From assembly GCF_964204645.1 (NCBI RefSeq), contig NC_134031.1, positions 18,597,307 through 18,661,306 on the forward strand: a stretch of DNA of 64,000 nucleotides. Direction: 5' to 3'. Shown piece after piece: positions 39,416 through 62,857 of the stretch (its first letter is position 1; every line of letters starts with the position of its first letter). The translations under genes and the position numbers were made by a program. The notes beneath the pieces are model-generated. The model had not been told where the DNA came from. It worked only from the letters and a program-made list of their open reading frames with translations, and searched no databases. The stretch comes from Tubulanus polymorphus. Its lineage: Eukaryota; Nemertea; Palaeonemertea; Tubulaniformes; Tubulanidae.

Positions 39416-40498
39416 ATGGCCGACACGACGAACTCGAAGATGGTAAACACGTCGACGACTAGCGCCGCGCCAAAAACCTGCGGAGATTTTGGTTTGGCGT
39501 CGTGCGAATACACGCCGCTCTACGCTATACCAGTCGTACCGATATCGGCGCTGACCATCTGCGGAAATCTATTCAATATAATAGTGTTAACGTTCACGCG
39601 TGGTATGCACAACAATCCTGGATATTTCATGTTCAATTTAGCGCTAACCGACTTATGCGTCGGCGTGATAATGGCGTCGTTCATGGCTCCGAGGATTCTC
39701 GGAGGTACGTGGCCGGCGACTCGCGTTCAGAGCGACATCACCGCGTTCTTCATCCAGACGACCGTCAGCGTGTCGTTGATGTCGCTGACCGGTTTGAGCG
39801 TCGATCGGTACCTCAACATCAGTCGACCGCTTCACTACGACCGCCTGATGTCGAAGTGGCGTTGTATCGCGATTCTGATCGGTATTTGGACGCTCACCGG
39901 CGTTCTGCAGCTGCCGCCCGTGTTTTTCGGTTGGGGCGTATTCTTCTACGATTCGCGGTCGTTTCTGAGTTATTTCGACTACGCGCACTCGTGGGAGTGG
40001 ACCGTCGGTTATAACCTCATCTTCACCGTGCCGTGTTTGCTCGCGATATTCACGTGCCACGTGAAGATATTCCGCATCACTCGACGCCACATCGACGCCA
40101 TCAACGCTACCACCGTCCAATCAAACGCCAACAACAAACAACGAACGAGCCACAAAGCCATGCGCACGGTCGTCATAACGATAACCATGTTTTTCATATG
40201 CTGGACGCCGTTTTGTTTCGAGCAGTTGTCGTACTCGCTCAGCGGGAACACCGTCGCCCCCTGGCCGCAGGAAGTGCACATGCTCCTCTTGCTTCTCATA
40301 TTGTCGAACAGTTTTATGAATTGCATCATTTACAGCACGACGCATAAAGTTTTCCGAGACGGAGCGCGCCGGATTTTACGCACGGTTTTCTGTCGTCGCG
40401 GCTCGAGACCTCGCGTCGATCCGTACGACAACGAATTGAGATCGCGCTCTAAATCGCTATCGGTTACTATCTCCGTGGTAACCGATCAACAAAGCTGA
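39416..40498 (+). CDS. Class A (rhodopsin-like) GPCR, orphan, coding part in one exon
   Basis: A 360-residue receptor. TM1 is about 37-60 (GN at 50-51), TM2 72-95 (LALTDL), and TM3 108-132 ends in DRYLNISRPLHY. TM4 is 149-171, TM5 196-217 and TM6 250-272 with CWTPF (262-266). TM7 is about 288-308 with NSFMNCIIY, i.e. Cys replaces the Pro of NPxxY. The N-terminus has a glycosylation sequon (N11) and Cys at 22 and 30; the tail has a Cys (326) for possible palmitoylation and Ser-rich phosphosites. The canonical TM3 and second-loop cysteines are absent. An acceptor (TTTTTCAG, AG at 39392-39393) lies 22 bases before ATG, so the 5' UTR is spliced. The codons are GC-rich against AT-rich flanks, which supports coding. 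Ligand unknown. Confidence 0.92.
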   Translation: MADTTNSKMVNTSTTSAAPKTCGDFGLASCEYTPLYAIPVVPISALTICGNLFNIIVLTFTRGMHNNPGYFMFNLALTDLCVGVIMASFMAPRILGGTWPATRVQSDITAFFIQTTVSVSLMSLTGLSVDRYLNISRPLHYDRLMSKWRCIAILIGIWTLTGVLQLPPVFFGWGVFFYDSRSFLSYFDYAHSWEWTVGYNLIFTVPCLLAIFTCHVKIFRITRRHIDAINATTVQSNANNKQRTSHKAMRTVVITITMFFICWTPFCFEQLSYSLSGNTVAPWPQEVHMLLLLLILSNSFMNCIIYSTTHKVFRDGARRILRTVFCRRGSRPRVDPYDNELRSRSKSLSVTISVVTDQQS

Positions 40499-42181: not shown

Positions 42182-43616
42182 TTAGTTTCTATACTCCGGT
42201 AAATCAATACCCATACGGTCAATATTTGTTGCATAAGGATTCGTGCAATTAGTGAAAATTTTTCTGGCTCTGGTATAACAATCATACGGTCTCCGCGCGA
42301 TGCCACGAGCTGAAATAAAACATCGATCAGAAGTTTACCTCAATTCACTTGTTCCACTTGTAAGTATACCCCCCGTAATAGTTACTTCTCAACTGTGTTA
42401 GCCACTTGAATATTTTTTCTAACCTTACCGATGCGTAAAGGGAATGCGTTTGATGCAAGAAACTCTTTAATTGTTTTAGTGGGTTTGTCGAAAATTCTGT
42501 CGTTCACAACATCGACGAAAATTTCCTGAAAATCAAAACGAAAAACTTGAAACTCAGACAAATTCTCAGTCATTGTGGAAGTTTCAAACGGAATATGTCA
42601 AGTGTAGCTTGCCTCGCACTGTCGTGCTATGTTTTTCCTACTTTCATGGCCCCGGAAATTGCTCGCTGCCCAAGAAGATCTATTGATCCCGCGAAATTAG
42701 AGACAAAATCAATTTACTGTAAATAATACTTACATCGCAAACTTTTCTGACATTGCGAATCAGGAATTCATCTTGCGACCGACTCCAACTATTCCCCTCA
42801 TCAATTTCAACGCCTAAAAAATATTCAATTGAATGACTCAAAAAATAGCAGAAGATATATCATGATATTCGATAAAGTACAGATCTCCTAACCTGGTGGA
42901 TTCGGTAATATTCTCTGATTACGGATATTTAGAATGGTAGCCGGTTTATCGGGGGTCATCAGCGCCGTCCAATCTAAATCACATTTTCCACTTTTATCAT
43001 TACAACTCATTATATAATTCGAAGACGTTTCATCGGAATTTTCACCTCGAGTCGTCGGAACGTCGACAGAATCACCGTCCGAGATCGAGTGCCTTTGAAT
43101 CGGTAAAATTTCACCGTCAAAAACGTACGAATTTCGAGAATATTCATCCACAGATTCTGGACTAGTTTTCGAATCCGAAGTTCGATCTAGAATGCATTTT
43201 TTAGTGGGCGGCGCTTTCTGACTGACGTCTTCGAACATATCTCTCTGAGTATCGGTGGGCCTTTGAAGAGACGACCGGTCGCTTTCACCGGAGCTGTTCA
43301 CCGAAATGAGTGAAATCTGCGAGACGACGCCCGCTTCAGCTGTGCACGAAAACATGTCTTTTTGCGTGTCACACGGCGTTTGAACGTGAATTTCGGCGCT
43401 TGATTCTAATTTAGAATTTTCAATTTGATGTCGCGAAGAATCAATAAGAAAGTAAGCTTTCAGGAGATTATTCATGTGCTCCTTCATTCTCTTTTTTTTC
43501 CTCGAAGCGGATTCTCGTTTTTGAGAATTTTTGGTAACTAGCCACCGTTGAGTGAGCGAGGTCCGAGCCGTGAAATATTCCGATTGTTGGCTATCGCACG
43601 TATTCACTCCATTCAT
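42182..43616 (-). CDS. Unrecognised 342-residue Ser-rich protein (4 coding exons)
   Basis: Exons 43616-42893, 42813-42734, 42525-42429 and 42309-42182 join in phase (1, 0, 1) to a TAA stop. The start chosen is the ATG 16 bases after a good acceptor (TTTTTCTGTGTAG). The frame is open upstream of it, so more N-terminal sequence may exist. About the first 240 residues are polar and low-complexity: a basic patch (KNSQKRESASRKKKRMKEH), then many Ser/Asp/Glu and two copies of a C/PTDTQ[KR]DMF motif (PCDTQKDMFS and PTDTQRDMFE). The last ~100 residues, across the three small exons, look folded and conserved (WSRSQDEFLIRNVRKVCDEI, FDKPTKTIKEFLASNAFPLR, RPYDCYTRARKIF). I do not recognise the family. 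It is divergent to ODF2, but 2.6 kb separates the start codons. Confidence 0.65.
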
Positions 43617-43699
43617 CTCTAGTCCAAAATACCTACACAGAAAAAGAATATTTGAAACCATGGTTTTACTTAACTTACACACACACACACAGCACGGCG

Positions 43700-46201
43700 T
43701 GACGCTGATTTACCAAAAGAAAATATTCGTATTCGAATAGCAATGGTGTTTTAAGTGGTTGTTTTATGTTTTTTCAATCAAATATGGACATTTCAGATGA
43801 TGCCGGCCGATATGATGGATGTTTGGGCGACGAATCTCCGGATGTCTGTCTGTAAAAATCATTTTTACGCGTTTGTTTATTATACGTTTTTTAATCAACG
43901 ACAACGGAGCAATAAAATTTCAGTTCAGTTCAGTAGGTAAAGGTTGTGTACATATAACCATTAGGGACACCTAACCGCAGTTGCTCCCAGTTAGACCCTT
44001 AATGACAATTTTTAACATAAGGTGACTCTCACTTTTAACTTAGAACACAAACTTTTACTTTTTCAAAATTGTTATCCCGCGGCGCCCGGAGTACTCCGCA
44101 TTCGAGCCCGGAAACGCGATGAATTCAGAGCCGTTACTAGTCAGCGCCGTGGAGGACTATACGCCGCACTAACTACTCATAAACATAACCTATAATCCGA
44201 ACCACTGATTATAAACTCAATAATCCTTAATACGATTAGAATTGTAAAACATATTGTTTAAAACCGAAAACATCCTATTTTAGAAAGCGTAGGATTTCTG
44301 TAGTAATTTCAGATTAGATGAATCAGGTAATTCATTAAAAATACCCAAATATATGATCGACGTTCCACACTTCAGTTCTCACTTGTCGTTGACCGTTTTG
44401 AATATTCGATGTTCTGCCTCAACTTGTTTAATACCTCGGCTAAATTCAAGTTTTTAGGATAAAATCATACCGACCGCAGGTAATTAGTGACCTAAGTCTT
44501 TGTGTAATATCGGAATTTATGCCAGTGAATGTAACTGTGGAGATTTTTGCGGCGTAAATGCACAAAATAAGAATTTATTTTTGAATGTTTGGATGAAATT
44601 GATGTATTGTGTATCGTATGCCGACTTTCGTTGAAGTATTTTGAATTTTTTGAGCCACCGTTCTGTTGTTGTTGTTGTTGTTGTTTATAACCCCAGGCCT
44701 CGATATTCTTTCTTTATGTTCTCCTACAGTTATCGGTAGGCCTAGATCAAATTGTACAATAAGCCTTTCACTTTCAGTTGAAACTTTTCAAAGGTCTTCC
44801 TTAAATTCTTCGTTCATGAAACGGCTGTCTTTAATTAATAATAGGCCTCTAAAAAAATGTAAGTAGGCCTAGTGTACAAGCGAAGGCTATTCCTAAGAAG
44901 TGGCTTAATTTTGAGCCTTTTTTATTTTTAAAGTAGATATGAGAATTTTTAGACTTTTATGGTTTACAAATTTCCAGGTGACCAATCATTTATAGGCTAG
45001 GCCTATTCTACCACCTTGAGCATGATTGAAACTTGAGGCTAATTAGATACACACCACACATTGTAATTAACTAAGGAAACAATTCACGCTTACTAATTAT
45101 TGGATTCACTGAGCAGAAAAATGAGTAAATCACAGAGGACTCAGTGACTCAGGCTGTGAGATGCATGTTTACACGTACTAACCTGCCTGTTTGATAGTCT
45201 GATAGTACCCTCGGGGGTTCACTAATCACAAACTGTATATCACCAATCACTGGCTAGCGTGTGGTGTAAGGTGTTTTGAACTCAGCTGTGGTTGTGAATT
45301 CATTAAATTTATTGTGCAGTAAAATCTCGAGTTATTGAAGCTTTGATTATCTAATAACGGTGAGTTTGAGGAAAGCTGTAAATTTTGGTCAGGATTTTGT
45401 TGTGAATTCATTTATTTATGAGTAAGATTTTAAAGATTTGAGTTTCTGACACATTAGAGAGGGCAGTTGCTACATTGGAAAAATGTGTTGAAATGGTGGT
45501 CAGATTTTTCAAGCATTCAATTCTAAGAAATCTTTATTTAGCCTATTAGGGAAAATCGAATGTTGTCGGCTGGAAGTGCGAAAGACTAGCGGCACTGTGA
45601 ACAGAAAATTTAAGATAGAACAAGGCTTCTTGCCCTTAGGAGTGCACCTTTGGGATTTATATTTCGACTTTTTAAAGATTTTTTTGCAAAAGACTTTGGA
45701 GGGCACATTGAATTTTGAAGGAGATGGACTAGTCCACCTGACAGTGGTCCACCCCCTAAATCCACCCTCGGAGTATGTGGTTTATATAGGCTAATACAGA
45801 TAGGAGTTCAGTCTGTTGCCCTCATAGTCCAAAAATACAGGCTAGATACAAACAATAATTATATCAATGGACATAAGCCTAGTAATAATGTCTAATGGAC
45901 TAAATCAGCCACCTAGGCCTATCTGTCCTTTAATTACTAGTCACTGAGTGAAGAATGAGTCGGCCTTTTATCGGTATCCATATTTATTCAAAGGGCACTG
46001 AATGTATATTTGATTAGAGATGTCGGTATAGACTAAGTAACATTTTGTCGGCACATTCAAACTAGATTTCTGTAAGAGTAACAGGCAGAATCCGGTCGCT
46101 GAAAAGTTGGTTAAGGTTAACCAGTGGATAAGATTTCATTGTTACTTACTAGGCCCTATTTATCCACCAAATTTTACGAACTGATGTTTTTTTCGTTGCA
46201 G
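43700..46201. other. Region between the unknown gene and ODF2
   Basis: Must contain the promoters of both flanking genes and any ODF2 5' UTR exon. I could not place either. AGGCCTA words are dense at 44.69-46.15 kb, and a short (TTG)n is at 44663-44685. A partial family A foldback lies at 46083-46175, directly before the first ODF2 coding exon. Confidence 0.45.
46083..46175. repeat. Truncated family A foldback
   Basis: GAAAAGTTGGTTAAGGTTAA and AACCAGTGGATAAGATTTCA are retained and the right arm is degenerate. It ends about 25 bases before the acceptor of the first ODF2 coding exon. Confidence 0.55.
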
Positions 46202-46224: not shown

Positions 46225-49200
46225 ATGACAATCGGAAAAGGAGAACGCAGTACATCGCCGGTACATGTACATGTTAACGAGGAGACGCCGGTTCATGTAC
46301 ATATTAAAAAAGGAGCAGCAAGTCGAAAAGGAGCAGCAGAGGTAGGTCAACGGACAAGCCATAACGTTATGGGTCGCAATTGAACTCTTCGTTTCATTTC
46401 ACTGCTTTTTTTTCAGGCGAGTAATTTGAGGTCGAGCACTGCCTTAGCGAAAACGAGATGTCGTAGCCCATCCCCTGGCCCGTGGATCCCACCCCCGGGT
46501 AAATCAACCAGAGGATCTAAACCACTCACTTGGCAGGTATGTACCGATACTTAGAATCAACTTCGATATTTACAGCAAAATTTGATAAATTTGGATGTAT
46601 TAGAATAAGTGACCATTTTAAGATCGAAATCGTGAAAATTACTTGAATCTTACTACATGCAGAAATATTTGAATTATCTAATGATAAATAATTTCACGTC
46701 TTGTTTCCATTTCTCGCATGTTTTATTTGCGTGTTTTTTTTCGCTTTGCATAATTTGTTAATTGCTTTGTTTGATGAATTTCCTGCTTGCAATTCTTTAA
46801 AAATCTGAATTTCGACTATCAGTAGTTTATTAAATTCTAAAACTATAGACATAGTTAAACAACAACTAAAAATCTGCCTGATCGCTAGTTTGCATTCTAA
46901 AACGAAATGTAGTTTTTGACCAAAAAAAACTAATCCTCGGGTAAATGCTAGATATTAATTACTAAGATTAGATAACTAATGAAAACTAAAGTTGACCGAT
47001 AACTTTAATTGAGAATAAAAAATTCGAGGACTGTGAAAATTCTGAGAAAGCTGAACTGGCAAAAAATTATTGGTAAGTTTAGCGTAGAAAAAATAGCTGT
47101 TAATTTTTCGAACAAATTTGACTCGTTTTGGACCATGTCAAGGTTCCGCAATTTTGGGTTAAATCTTAATTCTAGATTCAAACTCTGGAGATCCGTGGAA
47201 CTGGGTCCTGGATTCAGTTTCACAAACGGGATTGAAATATTCTTTCAATAATGAAGCTGAATTTATGGGCTGATGGTAGATCATCTTTTGGCCTGTCGGA
47301 AAATATTCAACATGTCAAGTTTACTACGATGTAGTAATGTTTAATACAATCGACCTTCAATTCAGAGTTAATGCTGTTTAAATATCGCTCCGTCAAACAG
47401 TAGAATTCAGTCTCATCGAGGGACGCTTTATATTTCTTTTCTTTTTTATGAAAGAAAGTCATGGAATGAATTGTATTATTGTTTTGACAGGGTCTAGTTT
47501 GTACACACATTCACCTAGTAAGTCGTCGGTACTGTCTTTGTATAATTGTAAAACATTCTTCGCTTGAAAACTGAATGAAAGATTGTGCCGTTTTAGTTTA
47601 TTGAAATTGACTTAGTAATGACACACATTCCACGTCAATAAACAGGTGGTTGATTTTAGCCAATATTTGTCGGCCCTGGCGTGTGTGGTTTATGTCACTG
47701 TTTTAGTGCCTTGATTATATATAAAATCACTGGTTGTTTGACATAGCAGTTAAAACAATCTTGAGCAAAAGTGATTATACTTTTTCATATCATAGATTTA
47801 GCAAATTAGGACTAAATCAGCTTTGAAAATATACCTTATAATCTATGGCCAGTTTCACAGTTGTGAGTTAAAGTTAACTCTGACCTCAGGATCCAGTTCC
47901 ACAGTTTATGAGTTAGAATTGATTCTTGGGTTAATATTAGTACAATCTAAATATTTCAACACCAGGAATTACAAGGAATCCAAAAAAACAACTCAGTTCA
48001 TTTTAAACTTTGAGATCAGAATTGTCGAACTGTGGGCTGACGAGCTGAAATCAAGTAGTGCTCAATAAAACATCTTTTCTGGTTCCGATGAAATTATGAA
48101 ACGGATTTAGGAAATATGATTAATTTTTCACTGTTTGTTCAGGGTAAATCAGGAAGATTAGAAATACATCAGCCCCGTAGCGGATCCGGCGGGGAACTCG
48201 ATACCGATGAAGAAGATCAGGTCGAGAATAAAATGCGTCAATACGAAAATAAAATCGATAATTTGATGACCGAAATGGGAACTTTACGCAATGAGGTAAC
48301 GATGAAAATAACGAACTCTTTTCATGTTGGCAGAACAAAGTTTAGTATAAAAATCACACTCTAGGAAAGAAAATAAGAGTGAAATTCAGTATTCCTGAAG
48401 ATGACTATTAGGATGTAGTCGAAACATTGGATATGAATCAATAACTCGAGGAATTATTTTGCTTCTTTAGCGTGGGATTTTTTATCATAACAATATGAAC
48501 TCACAGGGTGGCCACTGACCTGGAAAACTCGCGGAATAAAAACCAAAAAATCTAGAATAAAATCAGGGAAAATTTGAGCAATTTGACAAATTTTATGAAC
48601 AATCTGGAAAACTCGGGGAGATCTGGTAATGCTTTTGACTACTTGTGTTTCTTTATCAATAAGTGATTCAATGAAAAATGAATGAATTGTAACGTTTAAA
48701 CCTAGAAATTTCTCTGATTCACTGAGGGAATTTTTAGTCATCACATGGAATAATCGGGGAAAACTCAGCAGGGGAATTTGTAGCGAAGTGTCTAGAGAAT
48801 AAAAAAACTGACCCATGAAACGATTGTTTTTTGTTTCACAGGTCGAATTACAGAAAACTTTACGAGAAGTCGATAAAAAGGACGATTTATTGGAAGAATC
48901 TCGACGGATTCTCGAGGAACAGGAGGAAAAACTGGGCGAATATAAAGACGAACTCGAAGAAACCGAACGCGAGAATCTGATCTTGCGACGCAGCATGGAA
49001 CGAGGTTTAGAGCGTGTCTGCGACGCCGAGATGAACCGAGCCGAACAGGATCGATTGACCTCGGAGAAAGAGGAACTGATGAAGAAACTCGTCGAGGTTG
49101 AAATAGACGGACAGGCGGCGGCGAAACAGTGCGCCGCGTTGAAAGACGCGATACGTCGTCTCAGAGAGGTACGGTATATCGTACCGGGATCAGTTGTACA

Positions 49201-52200
49201 GCGGGGACTTAGTGCGGGATCTTAAGACTAGCCTTAAGTTGTTAGATTGGCTACAGAACAAAAATGAGCTTAGACTGGTTTTAAGTTGTTAGATTGGCTA
49301 CAGAACAAAAATGAGCTTAGACTGGTCTTAAGCTGTTAGATTGGTTACAGAACCAAAATGAGCTTAGACTGGTTTTAAGTTGTTAGATTGGTTATAGAAC
49401 CAAAATGAGCTTAGACTGGTTTTAAGTTGTTAGATTGGTTATAGAACCAAAATGAGCTTAGACTGGTTTTAAGTTGTTAGATTGGTTACAGAACCAAAAT
49501 GAGCTTAGACTGGTTTTAAGTTGTTAGATTGGTTATAGAACCAAAATGAGCTTAGACTGGTTTTAAGTTGTTAGATTGGCTACAGAACAAAAATGAGCTT
49601 AGACTGGTCTTAAGCTGTTAGATTGGTTACAGAACCAAAATGAGCTTAGACTGGTTTTAAGTTGTTAGATTGGTTATAGAACCAAAATGAGCTTAGACTG
49701 GTTTTAAGTTGTTAGATTGGTTATAGAACCAAAATGAGCTTAGACTGGTTTTAAGTTGTTAGATTTGTTATAGAACCAAAACGAGCTTTAGACTGGCCTT
49801 ACGTTGTTAGATTAGGTCTAAACCAAGCTCAAGCCAGGGTTCTGTTTAATGGAAACTCGATTTGATTTTATTGATTTCTCTGATTAATCTAATCCGCCTT
49901 TCTTCTCCCCCTCCTTTTTCCTCTCCCTCTCCTTTTTCCTCTCTCTCTCCCTCTCCCTCTCCCTCTCCCTCTCCCTCTCCCTCTCCCTCTCCCTCTCCCT
50001 CTCCCTCTCCCTCTCATTAATTGTCTCTTAATGTATTATTTCTGTCATGTTTTAGGAGAAGAGAATCAGTCCGTCTGACAGTGCATTGATCGCTAAACAG
50101 CGCGAGTTACTGATGGAGAAACTGGCTGATTTCGAATCGACGAATCGTAATCTACGTCGTCTGCTGAGAGAGGCTCATCGTAAAGAGGCCGCCGGAGTTC
50201 GGCTGATCGAACAAAGAGACGTTTTAATGAGGAAATTAGCGGAAACAGACGATTCTAATCAGGTTACTAACGACGACGATCAATCAATAACACCGTGTGC
50301 TACCTAGTTGACATGACAACTGTTATCATGGTTACTCCTAAAGCCGCACCTGATTACAATGAAATTGAAAAAAACCAATGAGTGTTTCATTTCGCATTCC
50401 TTCACTGTTTTTCTGTTGGGATGAAGCTCATCTTGTGTCGCTGTCTGCTGACAAACCAGGGCCCAGTTGCGCGGTCATCACTTAACCAGTTCCTAAGACT
50501 GGTCTTAAGTTGTTTAATTATTTGTAGAACAAAAAAAGTTGAAACACATTCTAAACGTAAGCTTTGACTGTAAAACTGGACCCAGTAGCCTGTAGTTGAT
50601 GACAGTGAGGTAGCAGAATACATCTTCAAGCTTTGTAATTGATAGAAATAACCTTTAGATCTAATGAACCTTTACTCACTATAACTCTACTGATAACACT
50701 AATGATAAGAGGACCGACGTGAGCGCAGCTCTTTTCCAAACGAGCAAATCGTTTATTTTCGATGTTGATTCTGTTTTCACAGCGACTGAGAGCGAGTTCA
50801 CTGGATAAAGAACGCGAGATGGTAGAATTAAAAGCGCAACTCGCAGCTCAAAGGGTAAGTGTGTCGCAAGTCCGTTTCCACGGTTCATGGTTGAAATTCC
50901 ACTAGGGTTAGAAAATTTGTAATCAAGTAATTTTGGCCCTCGAGTGAAATGCAACAGAAAACCGTATATCTGGCTCCGCTTCAAGGCCTGGGCCCATTTT
51001 CACAAAATAGTTGAACTCTTCATATTTGGTGTAATTGCTATAATGAGGACGACAATTCAAACTCGACCGTTTTTGGCTTACACTTTTTCGTGAAACTGTT
51101 TGATTTTTTGCTGTAAACTCTGACCCAATATAGATATCTATTTCAATAGAATTGCTGCGATTGTTTATTTACCAGGATGAGAATTTAGCTATGGCGAGTT
51201 TACAGGGTTCGATGGAATCGACAAGAGGACATTTACAAAAACAACTGCGCGCTAAAGAAGCCGATTGTAATCGTTTGGCCGTACAAGTTCGGGTATGTAT
51301 ACACACTTAAAAATGATTTTCACAAATTTCTGTTTGAATAATGAAATCGGGCGATGATTGTTGAATCGTTCTCGTCGTAAATCAGGGAATGGAAAGTCAG
51401 TTAGCTCAGGAAAAGATCGAAGTCGACCATCTACAGGAGTTACTGGGTCAAGCGAAGGAGAAAGCGGAAAGAGATAAAGAGGCTTTGAAGAAAGCTACCA
51501 GGTACATTGCGTAATATTGATCTAACTCTCCTTCAAACAATACAAACAGTAATATTGCCATTTAGTCAAAGAAATGTTCAAGCATTCCAAATATAGTAGA
51601 CTCCCTGTGGTTATTTATGATTTCCAATCGGCTATTAGGTCGTGGAAATATTTCGGGATTCGTTTTGACTCGTATTTTTATTTTTTTTCTAGGGTACAGA
51701 AGCAGCGAGCTTCGAGAAGCGAAGACGCGATGGAAATCATGAATTCGCAATTACTGGAGAAAGAAACTCAACTCGCCGAAATTCAGAATCATATGGACGA
51801 ATTTAAAGCGCGCATCGAGAAATTATCGCGCGAAAAGAACCAAACGATCACCGATAACGCTGTATTGAGAAAGTAAGCGTTTGATTTCATATTACAAAAA
51901 ATCTCAACAGAGATCGAGCTCGAGTCTAATGTCCGTTCTATGATATTTTAACAGTCGTATTTCCGAGTTGGAAGCGATGTTAGAAGCTACCGACGATCGT
52001 AATAAGTCGCAACAGGACGGTTTAAACATGAAACTACAACATAAATCATCGGAGGCGAATACGCTACGTTTGGAGAACGATCGTTTGAAGGTGAGAGAGA
52101 GAATCATTTCAATTAAACATCATGGTGTTAGTGGTTGAAGTCCCGCAGTTCGTATGGTTTAGCGTGACTCAATGGGTCCTCGTTACCGGTAGTTTATCGG

Positions 52201-55200
52201 TTCTGATTATGTTTATAGAACTCAGCGAGTCGTATTTAAACCATATTTACAATGTGGAACTAGATCTTATATATAACATATACAATGTCAATATCATCCT
52301 TCAGAAAGTTCAGTTTCAGTTCAGTTCAAACGCCGTGATTAACTGACTCTTCCGGCCTCGGTTTCTCAAAAAATTCAAAACTCATTACGACGAAAACTTT
52401 TTTTTCGATTTCAAGTTTGAACTCTCCGGGATTGTAATAGCGTTCAAGACTCAGTTCCACAGTTCTGAGTTCAACGCACAACTGTGGAACCAGCTCCAAT
52501 CGGATTTTCAAGGATGATAGCTACATGTACGAACGATAGGTTAAAGAATGTGTATTACCCCTGGCTGACCCTGATATAAATACGTCAATCTCATTATCTA
52601 CGTCGTAATCCGTATATCTATATCTATTATCAGTGTTTCTCCAGTTCAGTTTATATCATTAGCAATTTCTATGTTTCCTCTATTTGTTTCCGAGCTACAG
52701 CTAAAGTCCTCGAGCCAGTTCCACAGCTGTCTGTAGAGTTGAAATAACATTCTTGGGGCCAGTTGCGCGATAGTTAAAAGTTAACAGGCGAATGAATCCC
52801 GCAATGAATCAGACGATGGTATTTGTCCACCGGGTAACTTTAACCAGCTTTTGAGCAACTGCAGGCCCTGGTAGTTGATATTCGGTGTTTGAGTCTAGCG
52901 AAGCTTTAAGCGACATCCGTGGAACTGGATCGTGTCCTACACACATATTTTCAAGTGTTCTGTTGGATATTTTTTCCACATTGACAACTCGGATCAAACT
53001 GCTCGCACAATGATCTTCCGCTATTGGCGAAGAGGGTCATTCATTTGAAAACTTGCCAATTTCTTCAAGTTGGCCGCATTTGTGAGACAAAAGACAAGGG
53101 TTGACTTACTTTTAGCAATATTTAGGAGATAAAGGTTTCCTTAAAACAGTGCGTTTGGGTAACTTTGAGAGTTTGAATTAATTTTACTCATCATTTTCCG
53201 ACCTCGTTCGAATTCCTAAAGACCGAACTCGATTCAATGAAAGAAGATTTCAAACGTCAGGCGGACGAACTGCGTCAGGAGGGCGCCGTGTTACAGGCGC
53301 GATACGAGCAACTGAGTCGTAGTCTGGACGCGGCGAATCACGATAAACAGCGTCATCAACTTCAGAGCAGACGCCTCGCCGATCAGATCAATAATCTCAA
53401 TTCGGACGTCGAGAAATTCGTCGCCGATTCGACTCGTTTGAAACTAGAACGAGATCAATTGAAGGTACTCGTCAATCTGCTGTTGCTGTTGCTGCTGATG
53501 TGCATGTACTCACTAGTGTAGGGTACTCGCACGCATGGTATTCTCATTAAACCCAGTTCCACACTCTAAATCTAAAACTATCCTAACACAAAGTGGCCGC
53601 TTACCTGGAGATCAGGGAAAATTTGGGGAATATTCTTATCTTTAAAAGAGTCGGGGAATCTGGATTTTGTAAAAACAAAATGAAGCTAAAAAAAAGGGAA
53701 AAGTCAGGGAAATTTATCGAGATTGTTGTGTACCTGGGTTTTTTGGTCGTTTGCAAATTGAGTGTTGATATTTTGGGTTCGCATTTTGAGGCATGATTTT
53801 AGCTATAGTCTTATTATTTGGAAAATGCTTTGCATAAATTTTCTGATTTAAGTTTTGAGATTTACAATTTACGAAGTTTCTGCTTCCAATGAAATGATAA
53901 CTAGATACGTAGATTGCAATAGAATCACTCAGGGTTTTTGAGTGAATTGAAAAATGAAAATTTGGTTCGAATACATTGCTAGGATATCATTTATGGCTTC
54001 ATAGATTCTCCAGCAAAACCTATTCTTTCTGTCTCTCGTATGCGCTGTAGTCAAAATCAATTTTGGATCTAATTTCGTCAAAATTCATCATTTGAGATTC
54101 GTTGAATTTGAATAAGATATTGAATATGATCTGGATCCATTTCCGCAATTGACAATTGTTATTTAACTGTAGAGTCAAACCTAATTGGAAAAGGCTTAGC
54201 TCTAGAGTTAGATTCAAACGACAACTGTGGACTCGGGTTATGATTGATTTGTTTTTGTTTATTGCGCGAAGTCTGAACTGGAAACATCTCGTAGTTTCTC
54301 CGCCGCTCAAATCGATGCGTTGAACAAAGAATGCGCCGCGCTGAAATCGAAATGCGAAAACTTGAAAATCGATCTCGAAGCCGCCGCCAGGGGGCAGGAG
54401 AAGGAGAGAATCGAGTCGACTTGTTTGACCGAACAGGTCGACCAGTTGAAGTCGACCGTCGGGAAACTGCGATCGGAAAATATGGACGCGATAAATGAAA
54501 ATCAGGATTTGAAGGTATATTTGAGAGTTCGCAAAATTAAAGTTTTTATTAGAATAATGATATTTGATTGGTGGCTCTTTGGGTGATGGTACCTATAATA
54601 TTTAGGAATTGATTTACGATAAGAAGTTGGAGGAATTACAAAATTGCTTGTTTAATTACACGTTAAACAACTATTGAGGTTAGAAGATATCTTATAACCT
54701 TAAAGGCCCAGAAGCCCACACACATTATAAATGATAGATTTCTCTTAAATTTGAAAGTTGAAATTTGTAGATGAATTTGAAATCACTTGTCACGTACTGT
54801 TATCACTGTTTCAAGGCTATAGAACATGATCTTGAATCTTAAAATTGTTGGATTGACCATGAAATAAAAATGAGCTTCAAACTTATACCTGGCCGTGGAA
54901 CCAGTTGCATAGACCAGACTTTGAGAGTCCAAAACTGATCTTAAAACATTTGACCTGTTAGATTTCAGCCTTGACTGTGCAACAGGCCTCCGGACTTCTA
55001 AACTATAGATTTTTATCTGGAAATTTATGTATCTTCAGTTTATTTTTTTATTTTTCTGTACTTTTATTCGATAAAAGCATGAATTGAAATCGGAGAAAGA
55101 ATTATTGAAAACGCGTACGGAACAATACGCTCGTGACCATGCCGACCACGAGGCTAAAGTCGACGCGATTCAAACGGAGTTAGACGCCGCGATTAGAGGC

Positions 55201-58200
55201 ATGGAGGCATGTCGCCTAGACAACCAACAACTGACCGACAATCAGGCGGCGTTGACTCGAGAAAACGATAACTTGAAACGTGATTTCGAGGAGTTGCGTT
55301 CTAGGAATTGTTTATTACTGGGTGAAAGAGATGCACTTCAGGTATCACTAGACCCGCGTAGTACCGAACATGCTTTTTACCTTACTGTCTCAAAACCCTT
55401 TCACTGACAGCATCTACCCCGCTATATGGTGTTTGATTGTCCCACCACAAACTGCATCTACCTTGCGGTGCCGCGTATTTTCTTACTTATTGATTAGCTA
55501 GCATCGTGAAATCGTAGGTATGTGGGGTTGTCTGAGTCGGCACTGGGTAGTTGAATTTTCAGAATTTTTTGAATATACATGTATGTCCACCGATTGTAGG
55601 ATGTGAAAGTGAAAGGGTTAATGTGCACAGATCTTCGTGTACATAGTATATGTATGATATGATAAGTAGTTCCTCTCCTCAGATTAGGCTTTCATATATT
55701 GTATACTGTTAGAATGTTCCTCTAAATATCTAATTCCTGTCTAAAATGTTCCATCATCCAATGAGCCTCTGCTCCTGCTGCTGCTGCTGCTGTTGTCAGT
55801 AAGAACAGTCAAAATTTACTAATCAAAATATCTCTTTAATTAATGGGGTCCAGTCTCCTTGTGTGGAGACTGGAGCCCGGACCCAGTTCCATATTTCCTG
55901 GCCGAATTGGTTGAATTCATTTCCGATGATTTAACCCTAGCCAAATTTTAACTAAAAGCTATGGAGCTGGATCGTGATTACGTAATCTCTTACCCTTAAA
56001 TTTCAAATACGTTTGAACATTTCAAAATGTCGGAATTTTCGAATCCTCGATTTTTGTTCTGAAATAAGACGTTTGTTTCCGACGCGCAGAATACGATGAC
56101 GACCTTCGAGCAGACGACGCCGGCGACCGAGAATCACCGCGAGTTACTGCAGCACGTCGACGAACTCAATCAACAATGCGTTGTGTTAAAGATGCATCTC
56201 GCGTCGGTTACCGACGATTTGAATAAATCGCTCGAGCGAGTCGACGCGAAGAATAAAGATACGTGTCGTCTGACCGGACAGGTCGACCAGCTTCGACTCG
56301 ATTTCGATAAACTGAAAATGAAAAACGGCAACTTGAAATCGGAACGAAAAGAGTTAAAGGTATAAAAACATCGGGGAAACTTGAGAGACAAAGTTTCACA
56401 CTTTTATAATCAGGGCCTGGTGGTTGCTTGGTCAAGGCTTAGATTGAAGACCAGTCTCAACTTAAGGCCACTTAAGTTCTGCAGCCAATCTAATAAGTTT
56501 AGATCAGTCTTAAGATTGAACACCACTTCTTGTTAAGTTGTGGTTGCATGGTCACGACAGCCAATATGACTGAAGATCAGTCTTAAGATCTAACACCACC
56601 TTTGAAGTTGAGTCATGACTGCACTGATCCCCAGGTGAAATGGGCCCGTTTGGCAGTCCTGACTTTAAAATCCAAAAATGGTCTCGAATATTGAGATTGG
56701 TCTTTTAAGACTTTTTTGACTGTAGAACGAAGATGGACATAGACTGGTCCTAAAGCTTAGCCATGACTGACCACTGGGTCTGGATAATAGATGTCTCGGC
56801 TTGGAAGTAATTAGCTTAAACGGCATAATTTTCAAAAGATCATTTAACTCAACTTGAAAAAACTTCATAATTGCCTGAATTTGAATCGAAGTTTTACCGA
56901 AACTCGTGTTGTTTCTATCATTGGCATAAAGATGGCGCTGCAGCGCGCTAACGATGAATTGTGCGAGTTGCGAGGTCGGTTTACCGGTTCACAGTCGCTG
57001 AACGACTCGCTGAAAGCGGAGGTTAACGTCGCGATGAAAGGATTCGAAACTCAACAGACGGAATGCGACCGATTGAACGAACAGTTGAACGCGGCGAAAT
57101 CTGAAACTCAAAAATTCGTCGCCGAAAACGCGGTTCTTATTAAAGATAACGAACGTTTGAAGGTAAAAAATAACTCAGAAAAGTGTTGAGTTAGATTTAG
57201 TTACCGTTTAGAATTATGAACCTATTGTTTCCTGTTACTGTTGATGTTACTGTTTGATTTCCTTTTACTGAAAATGTTGTTTATTTTGTTTGTTTGTGAA
57301 AAATTGAAATAAAGTTTAGAGATGAATTTTATGGCTGCCATTTCTATTTCTTGTTGTTCGTTTGTGAAATAGTTCTGTGTTATTACCAAACCTTTTTTTG
57401 CTTCGAAAACCAGTTCCACGGTGTAAGGACTTGGGACTGGAAACCTATTTAACCTTTAGATAATTTTCCTTTGAATGATATGTTGGCGATTGTTTTCACT
57501 AATCAAAATCCATTTATTTTTACTAATTGTAATGTAGTTGTATATTGTTTGTAGGTAGGTGTTTAAAGAAAACCAAATACGCTTCATTCTAATTGATGGT
57601 TGTTCTGAAAACTGTGTTACAGAGCATTACCCTGAATCGTGAAATAATTCTTTCCTTTTACTGGAAATTACTAAACAATCTAGGGGAAGGCAACTGCTCA
57701 AAAAGCTGGTTCGAGTTAACCGGTTGGTAGTTGACATTGTGATAAATAAAAGTTCATTGTTACTATGGTATACATCTGACGGTTATCTTTAACCAACTCT
57801 TGAGCAACTAGCCCCTAAATCCTATGCTTTGCTTGTTCCCAGCCCCCTCTCCTTCCCTCTTCCGGTTGTTACTAAAAACTCCGAAGTCATATTCTCTTAA
57901 TTCAGCGCGTGTATGTTTAATGATTCGATGTTTGTTTGCATTTTAGTCGTCGATTGGAACTATCGAAGATAAATTATCGCAGGCCGAGTTAGAAGTGTCG
58001 ACTTTGAAATCGAGTCTACGCCAATACGAGAACTTGGTCGAGGAATATCGCGTTCAGGTCGGTATACCGGGGCTGGTGTTAGAGAGGGGGTTTCCTTGCG
58101 TATATTGCTGTATATTGAAAATGATGAATTTGATGAAGTCGAGAGAATAAGGCCTAATGTAGAAACGTAACGACGAATCTCTTTGTAATTCAGGTGAATA

Positions 58201-61200
58201 AATCTCGAGCCGAGTCCGAGGAAGTGATCGGTAAATATGAGGAATCGCAGAAAGAAGTAGCACGCGCTCAACGCGAGGGAGATATAGAACTAGAGAAGGT
58301 AAATAATTCACTTATTTATCGCCGTGCGTCGAGAGGAAATAAAACTAACAAACAATACAGAAAAAACACTTGAAATCAACACAGATTTTTAATGTGTTAA
58401 GTTAACTACAGCGGAACCTTGTTACAACGAACTTCAGGAGACCAGAAAATCTCTTCATTGACATTCTAATCGATAGTTCATTGTATCTAGTATGAAATTA
58501 ATCAAAATTGTCTAAACTTTGGTCACAAAATTCCAGGCCTGTTATCTGATTAAGTGTTATCCAAGTTCGTTATAACGAGGTTCAATTGTATAGTTTAAGA
58601 ATGAAAGCTAACTATAGTAAAACAATTGATCCATGAGCCAAGGCATTGTAGCGTTTAACATTAGTCTGTGCACTCTTTAACAGTAAGCGGTTAACCAACA
58701 CCTCGGTAGCTGGTAGGTTTAGAATTTCATTAAGCTACCGCATGCTGCCAATTACCATCATTTCACCGATGTTTCTCTGAATAAAGAATATTGTCCGCAA
58801 TATTTGACACTTGTAAAACAAATATACGCAGAATTATTTGGATTGTATTTCACTTGCACGTAAATATTGTATTCTATGATATTTACTGTAGTACACAGCA
58901 TCCTACCTTGCAACATTCTCACATTGCAGTGAATCTCACTAACTGAGTTATGCTTTCTATGCTAATTGAGTAATGTATGACATTCTGAAATATCTCAGAG
59001 GCGCGACAAGCTCCTGTTTGTCTCTGCCGATTCAGAATTTTAATTCGAAGATATTGAAAATGAACTTGATTTAAAAAATGAGAACTTGGTCGTGGGTCAA
59101 GATTTGATTCTAGCTCATTGAAACATTGAAAAACACACTGATTCTGAATTGAAGGGCACAGTTCAGGGTGTCTTTCATGCTTATAGGGACTAGGTGCAGC
59201 AGACCTGACTACGACTGCTATTTGAGAATAGTTTCTATTCCTAGTTCAACTTCTCTCAAAAATATCTAAATACAGCAGAACTGGCGTAAGAATTTCGACC
59301 GAATTTGCCGATTTTCCGAGTTACAGCTGTCCAACTTAGGCCATTTCTACTATACTCTCCAAATCGGTGTAATTTCTAGTTCATTTTCAATCGTACAACT
59401 TTTTTTGTCAAATTCTCTCGGTTTTATTGAAATCTACTACAATCAGTGATATCAGGTAGTCCGGACTGGTCTGGTCCAGCTGCTGCTGCTGCGTTATTCT
59501 ATGATGTGATATGACTATACTATATTTGACACTGACTCGTCTCGTAGGTTCGTAGCCGATTACAACAACGTTTACACGAACTCGAGCCGCTCCCGGAATT
59601 ATTGAAAACCACCGAACTTCGCTTGCAAGATTTAAACGATAAAAATATCGATTACGAACGTCGAAATATCGATCAGATGAGATTAACTACCGAGTTAAAT
59701 TCAAAGGTAGGAGAACCCCTTCTCTCCCCTCACCCCTTTATACTCCCTCGTCGCACCTCTACAAGGGAGGACTCCCCATACCCCGTTGTTAAGATTTTTG
59801 TTCGGCTGAAGTATTTGTTTTTCTCGTTCTGTGTCGATGTTTTTACGTTTTGTACGTAGCTTCGCTTAAAACTAACATTTTCGCGTTTTCTAGTGTCAGA
59901 TTTCTGTGTGTTTGTTCCAGACAATGTTTCAGGTGGTTTTCGGGATGTCTCGTTCTAGGGGCTGGAACCAGTTCCATAGTTCACCCAAAAATCAGTTCAT
60001 ATTCAGTACTCAACCCACGACTGTGAAACTGTAGAACTGTGGAACTGTGAAACCAGCTCCTGGACAAGGGCTTTGCTTTTTGAGGAGCCTGATGATACCA
60101 AAATTGTTGAACACTTCACACGTACTTGAAATCTATAATCTAGCCATTGTTGAGGTGTAACCCGTAAGATTATCTGGTATTCAGAATGATCAAGGGGTAA
60201 CCCATAAGATCTTCTGTGGACCAGTAAAATCAGCTGGTATTCACACTGTTTTAGGGGTAACCCGTAAGATCATCTAGTATTAGGCCTCTAGAAAGCTGTC
60301 AGTGTTTTGTGTATCTAGTCTTGGCTCATGGTTAAACGGATAACAATTTTAAAAAAAACGGTTTAATTCTAAAATTAATGTTTTTTAACACGTCACAGTT
60401 TCAAGGATTTCTCGGTTTAACATACCGGTACTCGCATAACTAACATTTAAAGCACATGAAAATTTTCAGGTCTCGCAATCCGCAGCCGTGGAGCGCTCGT
60501 CCCCACCACCCCTGCGGTCCCGGTCTCCTGTATGGGACTCGGGCTACTCCCTGCCTCCTCGACCCCAGTCTCCGGTACGAGATACGACCGGCGGCGGTTG
60601 GAGCTCAGCGGATTCAGAAATGTTACGCGAACTGATGCAGAAGGTAAACTGTCGTCTGCTGTAAGAGCAGACGGACGGACGATGCATGAGTGTCTGGTTG
60701 AAGGGATCTATTTATAAACACAAAGCTGCCAAACATTAACAAGATTCAGTAAACCTCACCTAACTGGGTTAAAAACCTGGGACCAGTTGCTCAAAAAGTG
60801 GTTAGAGTTAACCGGGGGGATAGTTGACAATTTCATTGATACTTTGGTATTTATCCATCGCTTATCGATCACTTACTTCTGAGCAACTGGCCCCAGGACC
60901 GGCAAAATCAGTCCGAGTTAAAAATTGGAAATATAAGATCAGAAAAAATCAGAAAATGATCGCCTTATTGGTGTGAGTTAGTCAAAACTCCTAAGTTTGC
61001 TAGTTAGGTAAGGTTTACTGTAAATTATAAACCTTTTCCATTTGGATCTGGTTCCACAATTCTCTGTTAAATCTGACTCTAGAGTCAATTCTTAACTTAA
61101 AACTGTGGAACTGGGTCCAGAACAAAGACTTCATGAAGAACCCTAGACGGGTATTCGACAATTTTCAAAATGATCTCTATTATTCGAACTGTTTAAAATT

Positions 61201-62857
61201 GTCTCATGATGTTGGCAGCTCTCCAACACATATTCTATCTGCATCACTTAACCTCTTCTAATCAATGTTTCTCAATCAAAGGCACCCCATGGTTTTTCGA
61301 AGAAGCAAATGTATTTCTGTATCAATGATTTTATGCATCTTGTGTTTTTGCGATCTCTGGTGGAGAGTTACTGTATGTGTCACTTGATTTCGTCTCATTC
61401 CAATCATTGCTTTCAACCCACCCAATATTGCATGTAATTGATTATTTGGGTTTTTAGCCCAGCAAAATACGACTTTGTTTGATTATGAATAACAAATGTT
61501 TCACCGGTTGAAGAAAATTCAATAAGTTTGATATTCTGACTTCTGACATAAGAAAAAAAAAGGGAGCCCAATAAGTTCGAATGAGTCGTCATCGCGGGTC
61601 TCTGATTGGTGTTTTTTGTAAATATTTGTAGGTCGACCATTTAACGAAACAGTTAGAATCGTTGAGAGACAAGTGGCACATATCGCAGGACGAGAACCGT
61701 TCGTTACAGACGACTCTCGAGATGTTAGAACGTAAATTACGAGAGGCAGACGAACAAAATCGTGAACTCGTAAACGCGCTTAATAAAAAAGAGGAAACCA
61801 TGGCGACTAATCAGGTGCGCGGCGCTTTTATCATTCCATACATGGCTACTATCATTACTGCTAAACGCGTTATGCTACACTCAATGCTTCCGCTCACGCG
61901 TATAGCTTCATTTAGACAGATGAATAGGCATCTGTCCTTTAGACTGCACCTTACTCTGCAACAGGTCGAATAAGGTGCAGTTTATGTTTTTAGTAAGGCA
62001 GAGTCTACTGTATTTAACTGAATTCACTCATTTACTTAATTAAGAGTCTATTCTATCATTTCTACTCAAACCACAAACACTGCCAGGTTGTCTATTAGAA
62101 TAGAATCTATATGACACAATGTATCTGTCACCATCACTTTAATCCATCACAGGCTTCACAATGCTATTAAATAGACAGGTAAAATGACAGGATAACATCG
62201 AACTAAAGAATAATCAATATTTTTTCGTTACAAGATGTTGAAATGTTATCTGAATAATTTCAGCATCGTCTAGACGAGAAATCTCGCGAGAACTCGTGTT
62301 TAACTCGTCAGTTAGAGAACTCGTTGACGGACGCGCGACGACAGGCGGAGCAGTCCCGCGAGAAAGCGTCGCAGAAAGAGCGACAATGTCACTCGCGAAT
62401 CCTCGATCTGGAAGCGCAACTCAGTCAAACACGCGGAGAAATATCACGTATCAAGAGAGAGAAAGAAGAGGTGCGTTCAGTCTTAGCTCATTCTAAACCG
62501 AAAATACTTTTAAATATGCTTGAAACTCCTTTAATTTGATCAAAACGCCCAAAACTCCTTCGATTCAGAAAAAAAGGGAATAAAAATTTTTGTTTGAAAG
62601 TTCGTTCGACTCAAATCGACAACATTTTAACCGCGTTGCTGTTTTTTGTATTTTCGTCGCAGGCCGAAAGAAGGTATAACTCGAGGCTTTACGATTTGAA
62701 GGATCGTTTGGAACAATCTCACAGCACGAACCGCAGCATGCAGAACTACGTTCAATTCCTGAAGAGCTCGTACGCGAACATATTCGGAGACACGACGATG
62801 GCTGGCAGCGCGTGCGGTGGCGCCACCTCTCCGCTACGATCCAGCGCGTTGAATTAA
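46225..62857 (+). CDS. ODF2: Outer dense fiber protein 2 / cenexin
   Basis: Coding exons: 46225-46341, 46417-46536, 48143-48295, 48842-49168, 50056-50262, 50783-50854, 51176-51292, 51386-51501, 51693-51872, 51955-52090, five extra cassettes (53222-53464, 54272-54514, 55078-55341, 56090-56359, 56932-57162), 57947-58057, 58194-58298, 59548-59706, 60470-60643, 61632-61814, 62264-62470 and 62663-62857. With all exons the protein is 1309 residues; without the five cassettes it is 892 (human about 830). ODF2 is a coiled-coil scaffold of mother-centriole appendages, needed for cilia, and of sperm-tail outer dense fibres. Diagnostic matches: VHVHVNEETPVHVHIKK (N-terminus), PGPWIPPPGKS, KQRELLMEKLADFESTNRNL, and DRLEQSHSTNRSMQNYVQFL followed by KSSYANIFGD at the C-terminus. 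Every junction closes in frame. Confidence 0.96.
48505..48790. repeat. GTGGCCACTGACC dispersed repeat in ODF2 intron 3
   Basis: Inverted relative to 11865-12056: it starts CAGGGTGGCCACTGACCTGG and contains AAATCTAGAATAAAATCAGG and TGAATGAATTGTAACGTTTA. It ends about 50 bases before exon 4. Confidence 0.6.
49187..49800. repeat. 47-bp minisatellite (about 12 units) grown from a family C foldback
   Basis: It begins 18 bases after the ODF2 exon 4 donor with a family C end (TCAGTTGTACAGCGGGGACT). The internal unit GAGCTTAGACTGGTTTTAAG followed by TTGTTAGATTGGTTATAGAA and CCAAAAT is then repeated every 47 bases. Single-base variants (GGCTACAGAACAAA or GGTTATAGAACCAA) recur in blocks, which suggests duplication of several units at once. 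Confidence 0.9.
49900..50020. repeat. (CTCTCC)n pyrimidine tract before ODF2 exon 5
   Basis: After TTCTCCCCCTCC come TTTTTCCTCTCCCT blocks, then about 15 CTCCCT hexamers. It ends some 35 bases before the exon 5 acceptor (50054-50055). Confidence 0.9.
50458..50584. repeat. Family C foldback, ODF2 intron 5
   Basis: GGGCCCAGTTGCGCGGTCAT at the left and TTGACTGTAAAACTGGACCC at the right, with AAGACTGGTCTTAAGTTGTT inside. Confidence 0.6.
52755..52869. repeat. Family A foldback in the intron before the ODF2 cassette array
   Basis: GGGGCCAGTTGCGCGATAGT at the left and CTTTTGAGCAACTGCAGGCC at the right, with AACTTTAACCAGC inside. It lies 353 bases upstream of cassette 1. Confidence 0.65.
53222..53464 (+). 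CDS. ODF2: ODF2 cassette exon 1 of 5 (81 codons)
   Basis: Phase 0 at both ends, 243 nt, acceptor CCTAAAG and donor GTACTC. It encodes a heptad-rich helix from TELDSMKEDFKRQADELRQE to DSTRLKLERDQLK. The block LDAANHDKQRHQLQSRRLAD then Q aligns with the equivalent segments of cassettes 2-5. The codon choice is GC-rich against AT-rich introns, which supports coding. It is absent from human ODF2 as I recall it. Confidence 0.85.
53590..53715. repeat. Fragment of the GTGGCCACCCTG repeat family, ODF2 cassette intron
   Basis: Starts AGTGGCCGCTTACCTGGAGA and continues TCAGGGAAAATTTGGGGAAT, like the inverted copy at 48505. Confidence 0.5.
54272..54514 (+). CDS. ODF2: ODF2 cassette exon 2 of 5 (81 codons)
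   Basis: Phase 0 at both ends and again exactly 243 nt; acceptor GCGCGAAG, donor GTATAT. Its LEAAARGQEKERIESTCLTE then QVDQLKSTVGKL corresponds to LDAANHDK... of cassette 1. It ends NENQDLK. It contains QVDQL, also found in cassette 4. Confidence 0.87.
54893..54995. repeat. Family C foldback between cassettes 2 and 3
   Basis: AACCAGTTGCATAGACCAGA at the left and CTTGACTGTGCAACAGGCCT at the right, with AAAACTGATCTTAAAACATT inside. Confidence 0.55.
55078..55341 (+). CDS. ODF2: ODF2 cassette exon 3 of 5 (88 codons)
   Basis: Phase 0 at both ends, 264 nt: one heptad (21 nt) longer than cassettes 1 and 2. Acceptor ATAAAAG, donor GTATCA. It contains LDAAIRGMEACRLDNQQLTD and ENDNLKRDFEELRSRN, and ends GERDALQ, the only cassette not ending in Leu-Lys. 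The extra residues lie in the C-terminal half. Confidence 0.85.
56090..56359 (+). CDS. ODF2: ODF2 cassette exon 4 of 5 (90 codons)
   Basis: Phase 0 at both ends, 270 nt; acceptor GACGCGCAG, donor GTATAA. It encodes VDELNQQCVVLKMHLASVTD and CRLTGQVDQLRLDFDKLKMK, and ends SERKELK. It is closest to cassette 2 over the QVDQL segment. Confidence 0.87.
56413..56634. repeat. Double family C foldback between cassettes 4 and 5
   Basis: It runs from CAGGGCCTGGTGGTTGCTTG to GACTGCACTGATCCCCAGG. GATCAGTCTTAAGAT occurs twice (about 56504 and 56575), so two elements seem joined. Confidence 0.6.
56641..56784. repeat. Family C foldback between cassettes 4 and 5, second copy
   Basis: GGGCCCGTTTGGCAGTCCTG at the left and AGCCATGACTGACCACTGGG at the right, with TGAGATTGGTCTTTTAAGAC inside. 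It directly follows the previous element. Confidence 0.6.
56932..57162 (+). CDS. ODF2: ODF2 cassette exon 5 of 5 (77 codons)
   Basis: Phase 0 at both ends, 231 nt (exactly 11 heptads); acceptor GCATAAAG, donor GTAAAA. It encodes LKAEVNVAMKGFETQQTECD then RLNEQLNAAKSE, and ends AENAVLIKDNERLK. The last six residues are almost the same as ENDRLK at the end of the constitutive exon 51955-52090. Confidence 0.85.
57682..57817. repeat. Family A foldback in the intron after the ODF2 cassette array
   Basis: GCAACTGCTCAAAAAGCTGG at the left and AACCAACTCTTGAGCAACTA at the right, with TTCATTGTTACTATGG inside. It lies about 130 bases upstream of exon 57947-58057. Confidence 0.75.
60470..60643 (+). other. 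ODF2: Ser/Pro/Arg-rich ODF2 exon interrupting the coiled coil
   Basis: A phase 0/0 exon of 58 codons whose first ~48 residues are not coiled coil. They contain ERSSPPPLRSRSPVWDSGYS and PPRPQSPVRDTTGGGWSSAD. The Ser-Pro pairs (SSPPP, RSRSPV, PQSPVR) are possible proline-directed phosphosites. Human ODF2, as I recall it, has a continuous coil here, so this looks like a hinge. It could be alternatively spliced because it preserves the frame. Confidence 0.8.
60781..60897. repeat. Family A foldback, ODF2 intron after exon 60470-60643
   Basis: CAGTTGCTCAAAAAGTGGTT at the left and CTTCTGAGCAACTGGCCCCA at the right; the interior is partly degenerate. Confidence 0.7.
61044..61119. repeat. Family B foldback, ODF2 intron
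   Basis: GGATCTGGTTCCACAATTCT at the left and AAAACTGTGGAACTGGGTCC at the right form a hairpin. Similar hairpins are at 47846-47945, 52450-52497 and 59968-60061. Confidence 0.7.

What the first reader, a model, noticed from the sequence alone, without database searches (positions are those of the whole stretch)
53222..57162. Five homologous cassette exons inserted into the ODF2 coiled coil
Between the exon ending ENDRLK (51955-52090) and the exon starting SSIGTIEDKL (57947-58057), which are adjacent segments in human ODF2 as I recall it (ENERLK then ASFAPMEDKL), lie five exons of 243, 243, 264, 270 and 231 nt. All are phase 0 on both sides, four of five end in Leu-Lys, and they align with one another (LDAA/LEAA/LDAA/LNKS/VNVA then C-x-L-x-x-Q). 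Together they add 417 residues, enough for roughly 60 nm of extra coil. Because each is frame-neutral, they could be skipped, combined or used one at a time. That would let one gene make centriolar or sperm-tail scaffolds of different length. The splicing mode is inference.
Basis: partly seen in the sequence, partly recalled or inferred. Interest (0 to 1): 0.85.

Follow-up and report, generated by a model that had tools for sequence, protein, structure and literature searches.

The report
Repeated extra exons lengthen ODF2 coil
In this animal the gene for ODF2, a rod protein of centrioles and sperm tails, carries five old copies of one exon that would make the rod up to about 60 nanometres longer; the copies fit so neatly that any could be left out, but whether cells do that is untested.

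Summary
Five GT-AG exons (243, 243, 264, 270, 231 nt; phase 0-0) lie between two exons that adjoin in vertebrate ODF2 as recalled. They are one family: a profile of any four finds the fifth among 2840 window ORF pieces at E 9e-16 to 3e-5; the best other piece scores at most 9.1 bits. A genome search found no convincing further copy. Synonymous sites look saturated, so the duplications are old. Corrections: phase 0 is not special (11 of 13 other introns), and the literal C-x-L-x-x-Q motif fits one copy. New: all five copies and the exon before them end at heptad position e, so skipping adds no register break in 32 of 32 combinations, though random deletions often add none either. New: all five acceptors are weak (percentiles 8-27 of 99; P = 0.0008 against the gene's others), donors ordinary. 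This fits optional exons but does not prove it. No cDNA and no other animal genome could be searched, so isoforms and the age of the insertion stay open. Best reading: an old tandem exon-duplication array that extends the ODF2 coil, perhaps with regulated inclusion.

The parts
46417..46536 (+). ODF2 exon n0 (N-terminal, PWIPPPGKS...)
   Evidence: ORF between AG and GT that resembles recalled vertebrate VPWMPPGKS (the end was set 3 nt too far)
48143..52090 (+). ODF2 exons n1-n8 (48143-48295, 48842-49168, 50056-50262, 50783-50854, 51176-51292, 51386-51501, 51693-51872, 51955-52090)
   Evidence: gene model; alignment to recalled vertebrate ODF2; own-genome search
53222..53464 (+). cassette exon A, 81 aa, phase 0-0
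54272..54514 (+). cassette exon B, 81 aa, phase 0-0
55078..55341 (+). cassette exon C, 88 aa, phase 0-0; 7-residue insert in the alignment
56090..56359 (+). cassette exon D, 90 aa, phase 0-0; N-terminal TTFEQTTPATENH scores poorly as coil (possible hinge)
56932..57162 (+). cassette exon E, 77 aa, phase 0-0; begins with ATG in good start context
57947..62857 (+). ODF2 exons c1-c7 (57947-58057, 58194-58298, 59548-59706, 60470-60643, 61632-61814, 62264-62470, 62663-62857 with stop)
60470..60643 (+). exon c4, 58 aa Ser/Pro-rich, second phase 0-0 segment absent from recalled vertebrate ODF2
   Evidence: 58-residue gap; splice sites at percentile 69 and 69
52755..52870 (+). foldback repeat in the intron before A (edges approximate)
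   Evidence: (I1, D1)
57690..57815 (+). related foldback repeat in the intron after E (edges approximate); one arm 88% complementary over 24 nt to the copy before A
   Evidence: (I1)

Best explanation
An exon of the ODF2 coiled coil, perhaps n8 or its last part, was tandemly duplicated long ago into five exons (A-E) placed between n8 and c1. Shown: the exons are coding-like, homologous, found only in this gene, in frame, and end at the same heptad position as n8. Inferred: spliced in, they extend the coil by up to 417 residues (about 62 nm), so ODF2 becomes a longer spacer in centriole appendages or the sperm tail. Inferred from weak acceptors and heptad neutrality: inclusion is regulated, so that exons can be skipped singly or together without disturbing the reading frame or the coil register on either side.
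For: Leave-one-out homology. Only this locus: next genome match E 0.34. Codon choice. Codon-position identity 0.41/0.55/0.33 against 0.26/0.30/0.26 in shuffles, so the protein sequence is what is kept. Left out, n8 and c1 join with no gap of 5 or more residues against recalled vertebrate ODF2. n8 is the best non-cassette piece in 2 of 5 leave-one-out searches (C, D) and second in 2 more (A, B), at only 6.2-8.2 bits; n8 and E share 18 of 20 nt at their ends including the donor (D7). Ends of n8 and A-E at heptad e in 24 of 24 tests (6 ends x 4 window lengths); other junctions are e|f in 3 of 13. No extra register break in 32 of 32 exon combinations; 7 of 9 other single-exon skips add at least one. 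Acceptors weak, P = 0.0008 against 15 other ODF2 acceptors and 0.005 against 99 kinesin acceptors. Alternative exons have weaker sites on average, and in mouse an Odf2 cassette exon is skipped in meiosis (PMC4671708, PMC3905889, passages).
Against: No transcript evidence. Weak acceptors and the heptad position may both come from one ancestral copy, so they are not five independent observations. Donors are not weak (P = 0.20 and 0.65), and one ordinary exon, c3, has an acceptor as weak (percentile 11). Random in-frame deletions of the same lengths add no break in 43-64% of trials, so the 0-of-32 result taken alone has a chance of about 0.06 (product of the five fractions). Scored alone, the starts of A, B and C prefer heptad b, i.e. 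a stutter at the junction. With the exons left in, the vertebrate alignment spreads over n8 to E instead of one clean gap. 5 of 15 undoubted ODF2 exons score below zero in the codon test. Derivation from n8 rests on weak scores; pattern-preserving shuffles support n8-D (none of 500) and weakly n8-A (P 0.03), not n8-B, n8-C or n8-E.
Confidence: 0.5

Rival explanations
1. Constitutive elongation: the same duplicated exons are always included, giving one longer ODF2 of at least 1230 residues and no isoform choice.
For: Donors ordinary; the gene is mostly phase 0, so symmetry needs no splicing explanation; the full-length model has 1019 of 1230 residues with coil P > 0.5; neutrality follows from tandem duplication alone.
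Against: All five acceptors are at percentiles 8-27 of 99.
Confidence: 0.38
2. The array is ancestral in animals and was lost or reduced on the way to vertebrates; it is not an insertion in this lineage. (Compatible with the best explanation or with the first rival.)
For: Identical residues use the same codon in 82 of 179 cases (46%, expected 44%), so synonymous sites look saturated and the duplications are old.
Against: None that could be tested; one scan each of bacterial/archaeal and viral contigs for ODF2 found nothing usable.
Confidence: 0.3
3. Part of the array serves alternative first exons: exon E opens with ATG in strong context, and a promoter in the preceding intron would make a short C-terminal ODF2.
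For: Sequence ATAAAG|ATGGCG at 56926-56937; mouse Odf2 uses a distinct start site in meiosis (PMC3905889 passages).
Against: E aligns with the other four copies as an internal exon and has an AG before it; no promoter test was made.
Confidence: 0.07
4. Foldback repeats in the two introns that bracket the array pair with each other and loop out all five exons together (all-or-none skipping or circular RNA).
For: 24-nt arms 52829-52852 and 57701-57724, 88% complementary.
Against: Seven copies of this repeat core lie in the window; each bracketing copy can fold on itself (-45.2 kcal/mol, z -4.1 after E; -35.5, z -0.8 before A), which competes with long-range pairing.
Confidence: 0.06

Closest known systems
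Vertebrate ODF2 / cenexin
   Different: The vertebrate form as recalled joins the two flanking segments directly; it has no A-E and no c4.
Meiosis-skipped cassette exon of mouse Odf2 (PMC3905889, passages seen)
   Same: An ODF2 exon whose skipping is tied to a switch from centriole to sperm-tail role.
   Different: One exon in a mammal, not a five-copy family; its position against A-E was not compared.
Tandem exon duplication in coiled-coil muscle genes (troponin T, PMC2447309, listing and start of abstract seen; tropomyosin recalled)
   Same: Duplicated exons in a coil protein, some alternatively spliced.
   Different: Here five 77-90 residue units in a centriole/sperm scaffold; use unknown.
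Mutually exclusive exon arrays such as Dscam (recalled)
   Same: Homologous exons in a row in one gene.
   Different: Here all five can be joined in frame with each other; the only complementary intron pair of note bracketing the array is a dispersed repeat.

Membership tests
ODF2/cenexin orthologue | Colinear similarity along the protein, incl. C-terminal SMQNYVQFLKSSYAN(I/V)FGD | tested here: met
No Pfam model reached its cut-off.
Tandem exon duplication | Adjacent exons homologous to each other beyond coiled-coil composition | tested here: met
   Leave-one-out profiles; pattern-preserving shuffles: 9 of 10 pairs at P <= 0.002, D-E 0.04.
Tandem exon duplication | Same phase and boundaries in all copies | tested here: met
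   Phase 0-0 in 5 of 5.
Alternatively spliced cassette exons | Transcripts with and without the exon | not testable with these tools
   No cDNA held.
Alternatively spliced cassette exons | Weaker splice sites than constitutive exons | tested here: inconclusive
   Acceptors weak, donors not; c3 is as weak; copies not independent.
Alternatively spliced cassette exons | Frame-neutral | tested here: met
   5 of 5, but 11 of 13 other introns are phase 0 as well.
Mutually exclusive exon cluster | Inclusion of one copy only | not testable with these tools
   No cDNA; all copies can be joined in frame.

The most novel reading that the evidence does not exclude
A built-in length adjuster: one gene makes up to 32 ODF2 rods that differ in steps of about 11-13 nm, because each optional exon is neutral for reading frame and for coil register, letting cells set the size of centriole appendages or sperm-tail fibres by splicing.
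Probability: 0.15. Interest if true: 0.8.

Novelty: new variant of a known kind. Interest (0 to 1): 0.48.

Why it matters
If the exons are optional, ODF2 length would be a natural experiment on how a coiled-coil scaffold sets organelle dimensions, testable by measuring appendages or sperm-tail fibres against isoform. If constitutive, it is still a clear case of a coil lengthened by exon duplication. I saw no report of such an array, but looked only at listings of ten searches and at passages of a few papers; some searches concerned ODF2, one search found no paper, and none of the 12 papers shown held the ODF2 term.

Tried and rejected
Phase-0 symmetry as evidence for optional use: dropped, since the gene is mostly phase 0. 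Recent duplication: dropped, synonymous sites look saturated, although B and D share 21 of 23 nt and A and E 14 of 14 nt locally. Further or decayed copies in the window: none seen, next profile match E 0.52. Copies elsewhere in the genome: none convincing. Known domain in the cassettes: coil matches only; in the PDB the best is bacterial Lpp, E 5.1e-5, a coiled coil; in Pfam the best is E 0.0002, cut-offs were printed for exon A alone and none was reached there. RBFOX-like TGCATG sites: 25 in the window, 27.5 expected. Naming the organism: no COI match in the assembly, and genome-size searches of papers gave nothing. Relatives in bacterial/archaeal and viral contigs: none. PDB relatives of the segment after the array (c1-c3): best E 0.1. 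Looping-out by the foldback repeats: kept as a weak rival.
Full report
What was checked. The window lies in a 267.8 Mb genome (contig C7), an animal's to judge by its genes (inference). The ODF2 gene runs on the + strand; I modelled 21 exons, n0 to c7, and did not find the extreme 5' end. The five exons of the finding are at the stated places with the stated sizes, all phase 0-0 with AG and GT at their edges.

Is the gene ODF2? Without the five exons the protein aligns with a human-like ODF2 sequence that I recalled from memory over 692 residues, 307 identical, with two gaps of five or more residues (smaller ones were not printed): 9 residues in n2 and 58 residues that are exon c4. The recalled sequence was tested against ten goat sperm peptides that I split from a run-on table in PMC7189512 (passages seen): 8 of 10 match fully and 2 differ at one residue. 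One, ASFAPMEDKLNQAHIEVQQLK, starts at the residue that follows the insertion point. The table gives goat ODF2 as 76 kDa, which leaves no room for 417 more residues (inference). So these residues are extra relative to vertebrates. Where exactly they were inserted is less sure: with the five exons left in, the aligner opens three gaps (194, 100, 123 residues, 417 in all) between the inside of n8 and the inside of E, with 311 identities instead of 307. All 14 genome matches of the ODF2 model at E <= 0.001 lie in this gene.

Are the five exons one family? Yes. Profiles built on four find the fifth with 21.6-55.4 bits (E 9.2e-16 to 3.1e-5) among 2840 six-frame pieces of the window, and the best non-cassette piece never passes 9.1 bits, although the pieces include the rest of the same coiled coil. 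With shuffles that keep hydrophobic positions, 9 of 10 pairs reach P <= 0.002; D-E is 0.04. Codon positions 1, 2, 3 agree in 41, 55 and 33% of 788 aligned codon pairs, against 26, 30 and 26% in shuffles. Synonymous codon scores are +0.08 to +0.39 bits per codon, against -0.02 or lower in the 25 longest of 65 intronic stop-free runs, the only ones printed; 5 of 15 other ODF2 exons score -0.03 to -0.13, so this test is soft. A whole-genome search with the 417 residues returned the five exons and one match at E 0.34. n8 is the first non-cassette piece in the leave-one-out searches for C and D and the second for A and B, and its end matches the end of E in 18 of 20 nt including the donor. Pairwise, n8-D stands out (none of 500 shuffles), n8-A weakly (0.03); n8-B, n8-C and n8-E do not (0.13, 0.53, 0.06). 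Origin from n8 is a lead only.

Age. Where two copies share a residue, they share the codon in 82 of 179 cases (46%; 44% expected from usage). The duplications are therefore old. This leaves open that the array is older than this lineage and was lost on the way to vertebrates.

Coil register. A Viterbi heptad assignment with the recalled COILS matrix puts all six junctions of the array (n8|A to E|c1) at e|f for each of six penalties from 2.5 to 8; elsewhere 3 of 13 junctions are e|f. Scored alone, the ends of n8, A, B, C, D and E are at e in 24 of 24 tests (four window lengths). The starts differ: A, B and C prefer b, which means a stutter at the junction, while E and c1 prefer f, and D f in three of four windows. 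Because every end is at e, each acceptor meets the same register whatever precedes it. In all 32 combinations skipping adds no register break; skipping other single exons adds at least one in 7 of 9 cases; random deletions of the same lengths (150 each) add none in 43-64% of trials, so for five exons together chance would give about 0.06. Lengths are 81, 81, 88, 90 and 77; C has a 7-residue insert in the alignment. Register neutrality follows naturally from tandem duplication of a coil exon; it is a condition for optional use and no proof of it.

Splice sites. I trained site models on kinesin genes of the same genome: 20 regions chosen among the 138 matches, 151 introns placed by a spliced alignment of my own, 135 kept, 99 used. 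Several of the 13 AAG acceptors among the 99 look misplaced, which makes the test milder. Cassette acceptors lie at percentiles 19, 12, 8, 18 and 27. Position -3 is A in 4 of 5 against 0 of 15 other ODF2 acceptors; the first exon base is G in 0 of 5 against 11 of 15. P = 0.0008 against the gene's other acceptors and 0.005 against the kinesin set. One other ODF2 exon, c3, is as weak (percentile 11). As whole sites the donors are ordinary (percentiles 29, 69, 46, 52, 79; P = 0.20 and 0.65), although +5 is G in 0 of 5 against 9 of 14. PMC4671708 (passages) states that sites of alternative exons are weaker on average; it also says that strength depends on intron age, which is another way to explain the result.

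Function. In mouse, a cassette exon of Odf2 is fully repressed in meiosis, tied to a switch from a centriole role to a sperm-tail role, together with a distinct transcription start (PMC3905889, passages). Optional exons in ODF2 thus have a precedent. For A-E I hold regulated inclusion somewhat more likely than constitutive use, at about even odds, and a full combinatorial length code unlikely but not excluded (0.15).

Limits. No cDNA, no other animal genome and no structure prediction were available. The vertebrate comparison and the coil matrix are recalled. The species was not identified.

Noticed in passing
60470-60643: Exon c4, 58 aa Ser/Pro-rich (SSPPPLRSRSP...RPQSPVRD), phase 0-0, sits where recalled vertebrate ODF2 has nothing; ordinary splice sites. 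A second extra segment, mostly not coil.
   Followed up: partly
56090-56160: Exon D opens with a stretch holding a proline (TTFEQTTPATENH) that scores poorly as coil, a possible hinge in the extended rod.
   Followed up: partly
52839, 57788 and 21198, 23019, 30519, 30614, 60785: Dispersed repeat core TTTAACCAGCTTTTGAGCAACT, seven matches with up to 3 mismatches in the window, 0.00 expected; the two copies in the introns that bracket the array are foldbacks.
   Followed up: partly
34341-34549 and 19 further places: Short motif AACTGTGGAACTGG: 25 matches with up to 2 mismatches in 64 kb, 0.43 expected; six of them spaced 39 nt apart at 34341-34549.
   Followed up: no
39419-40495: Rhodopsin-type GPCR in one open frame (Pfam 7tm_1, E 3.5e-41).
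   Followed up: no
48143-62857: 17 of 19 introns of this gene are phase 0, against 52 of 99 in kinesin genes of the same genome.
   Followed up: partly
42888-43709: Open frame of 273 aa on the - strand without a Pfam match at E <= 0.001.
   Followed up: no
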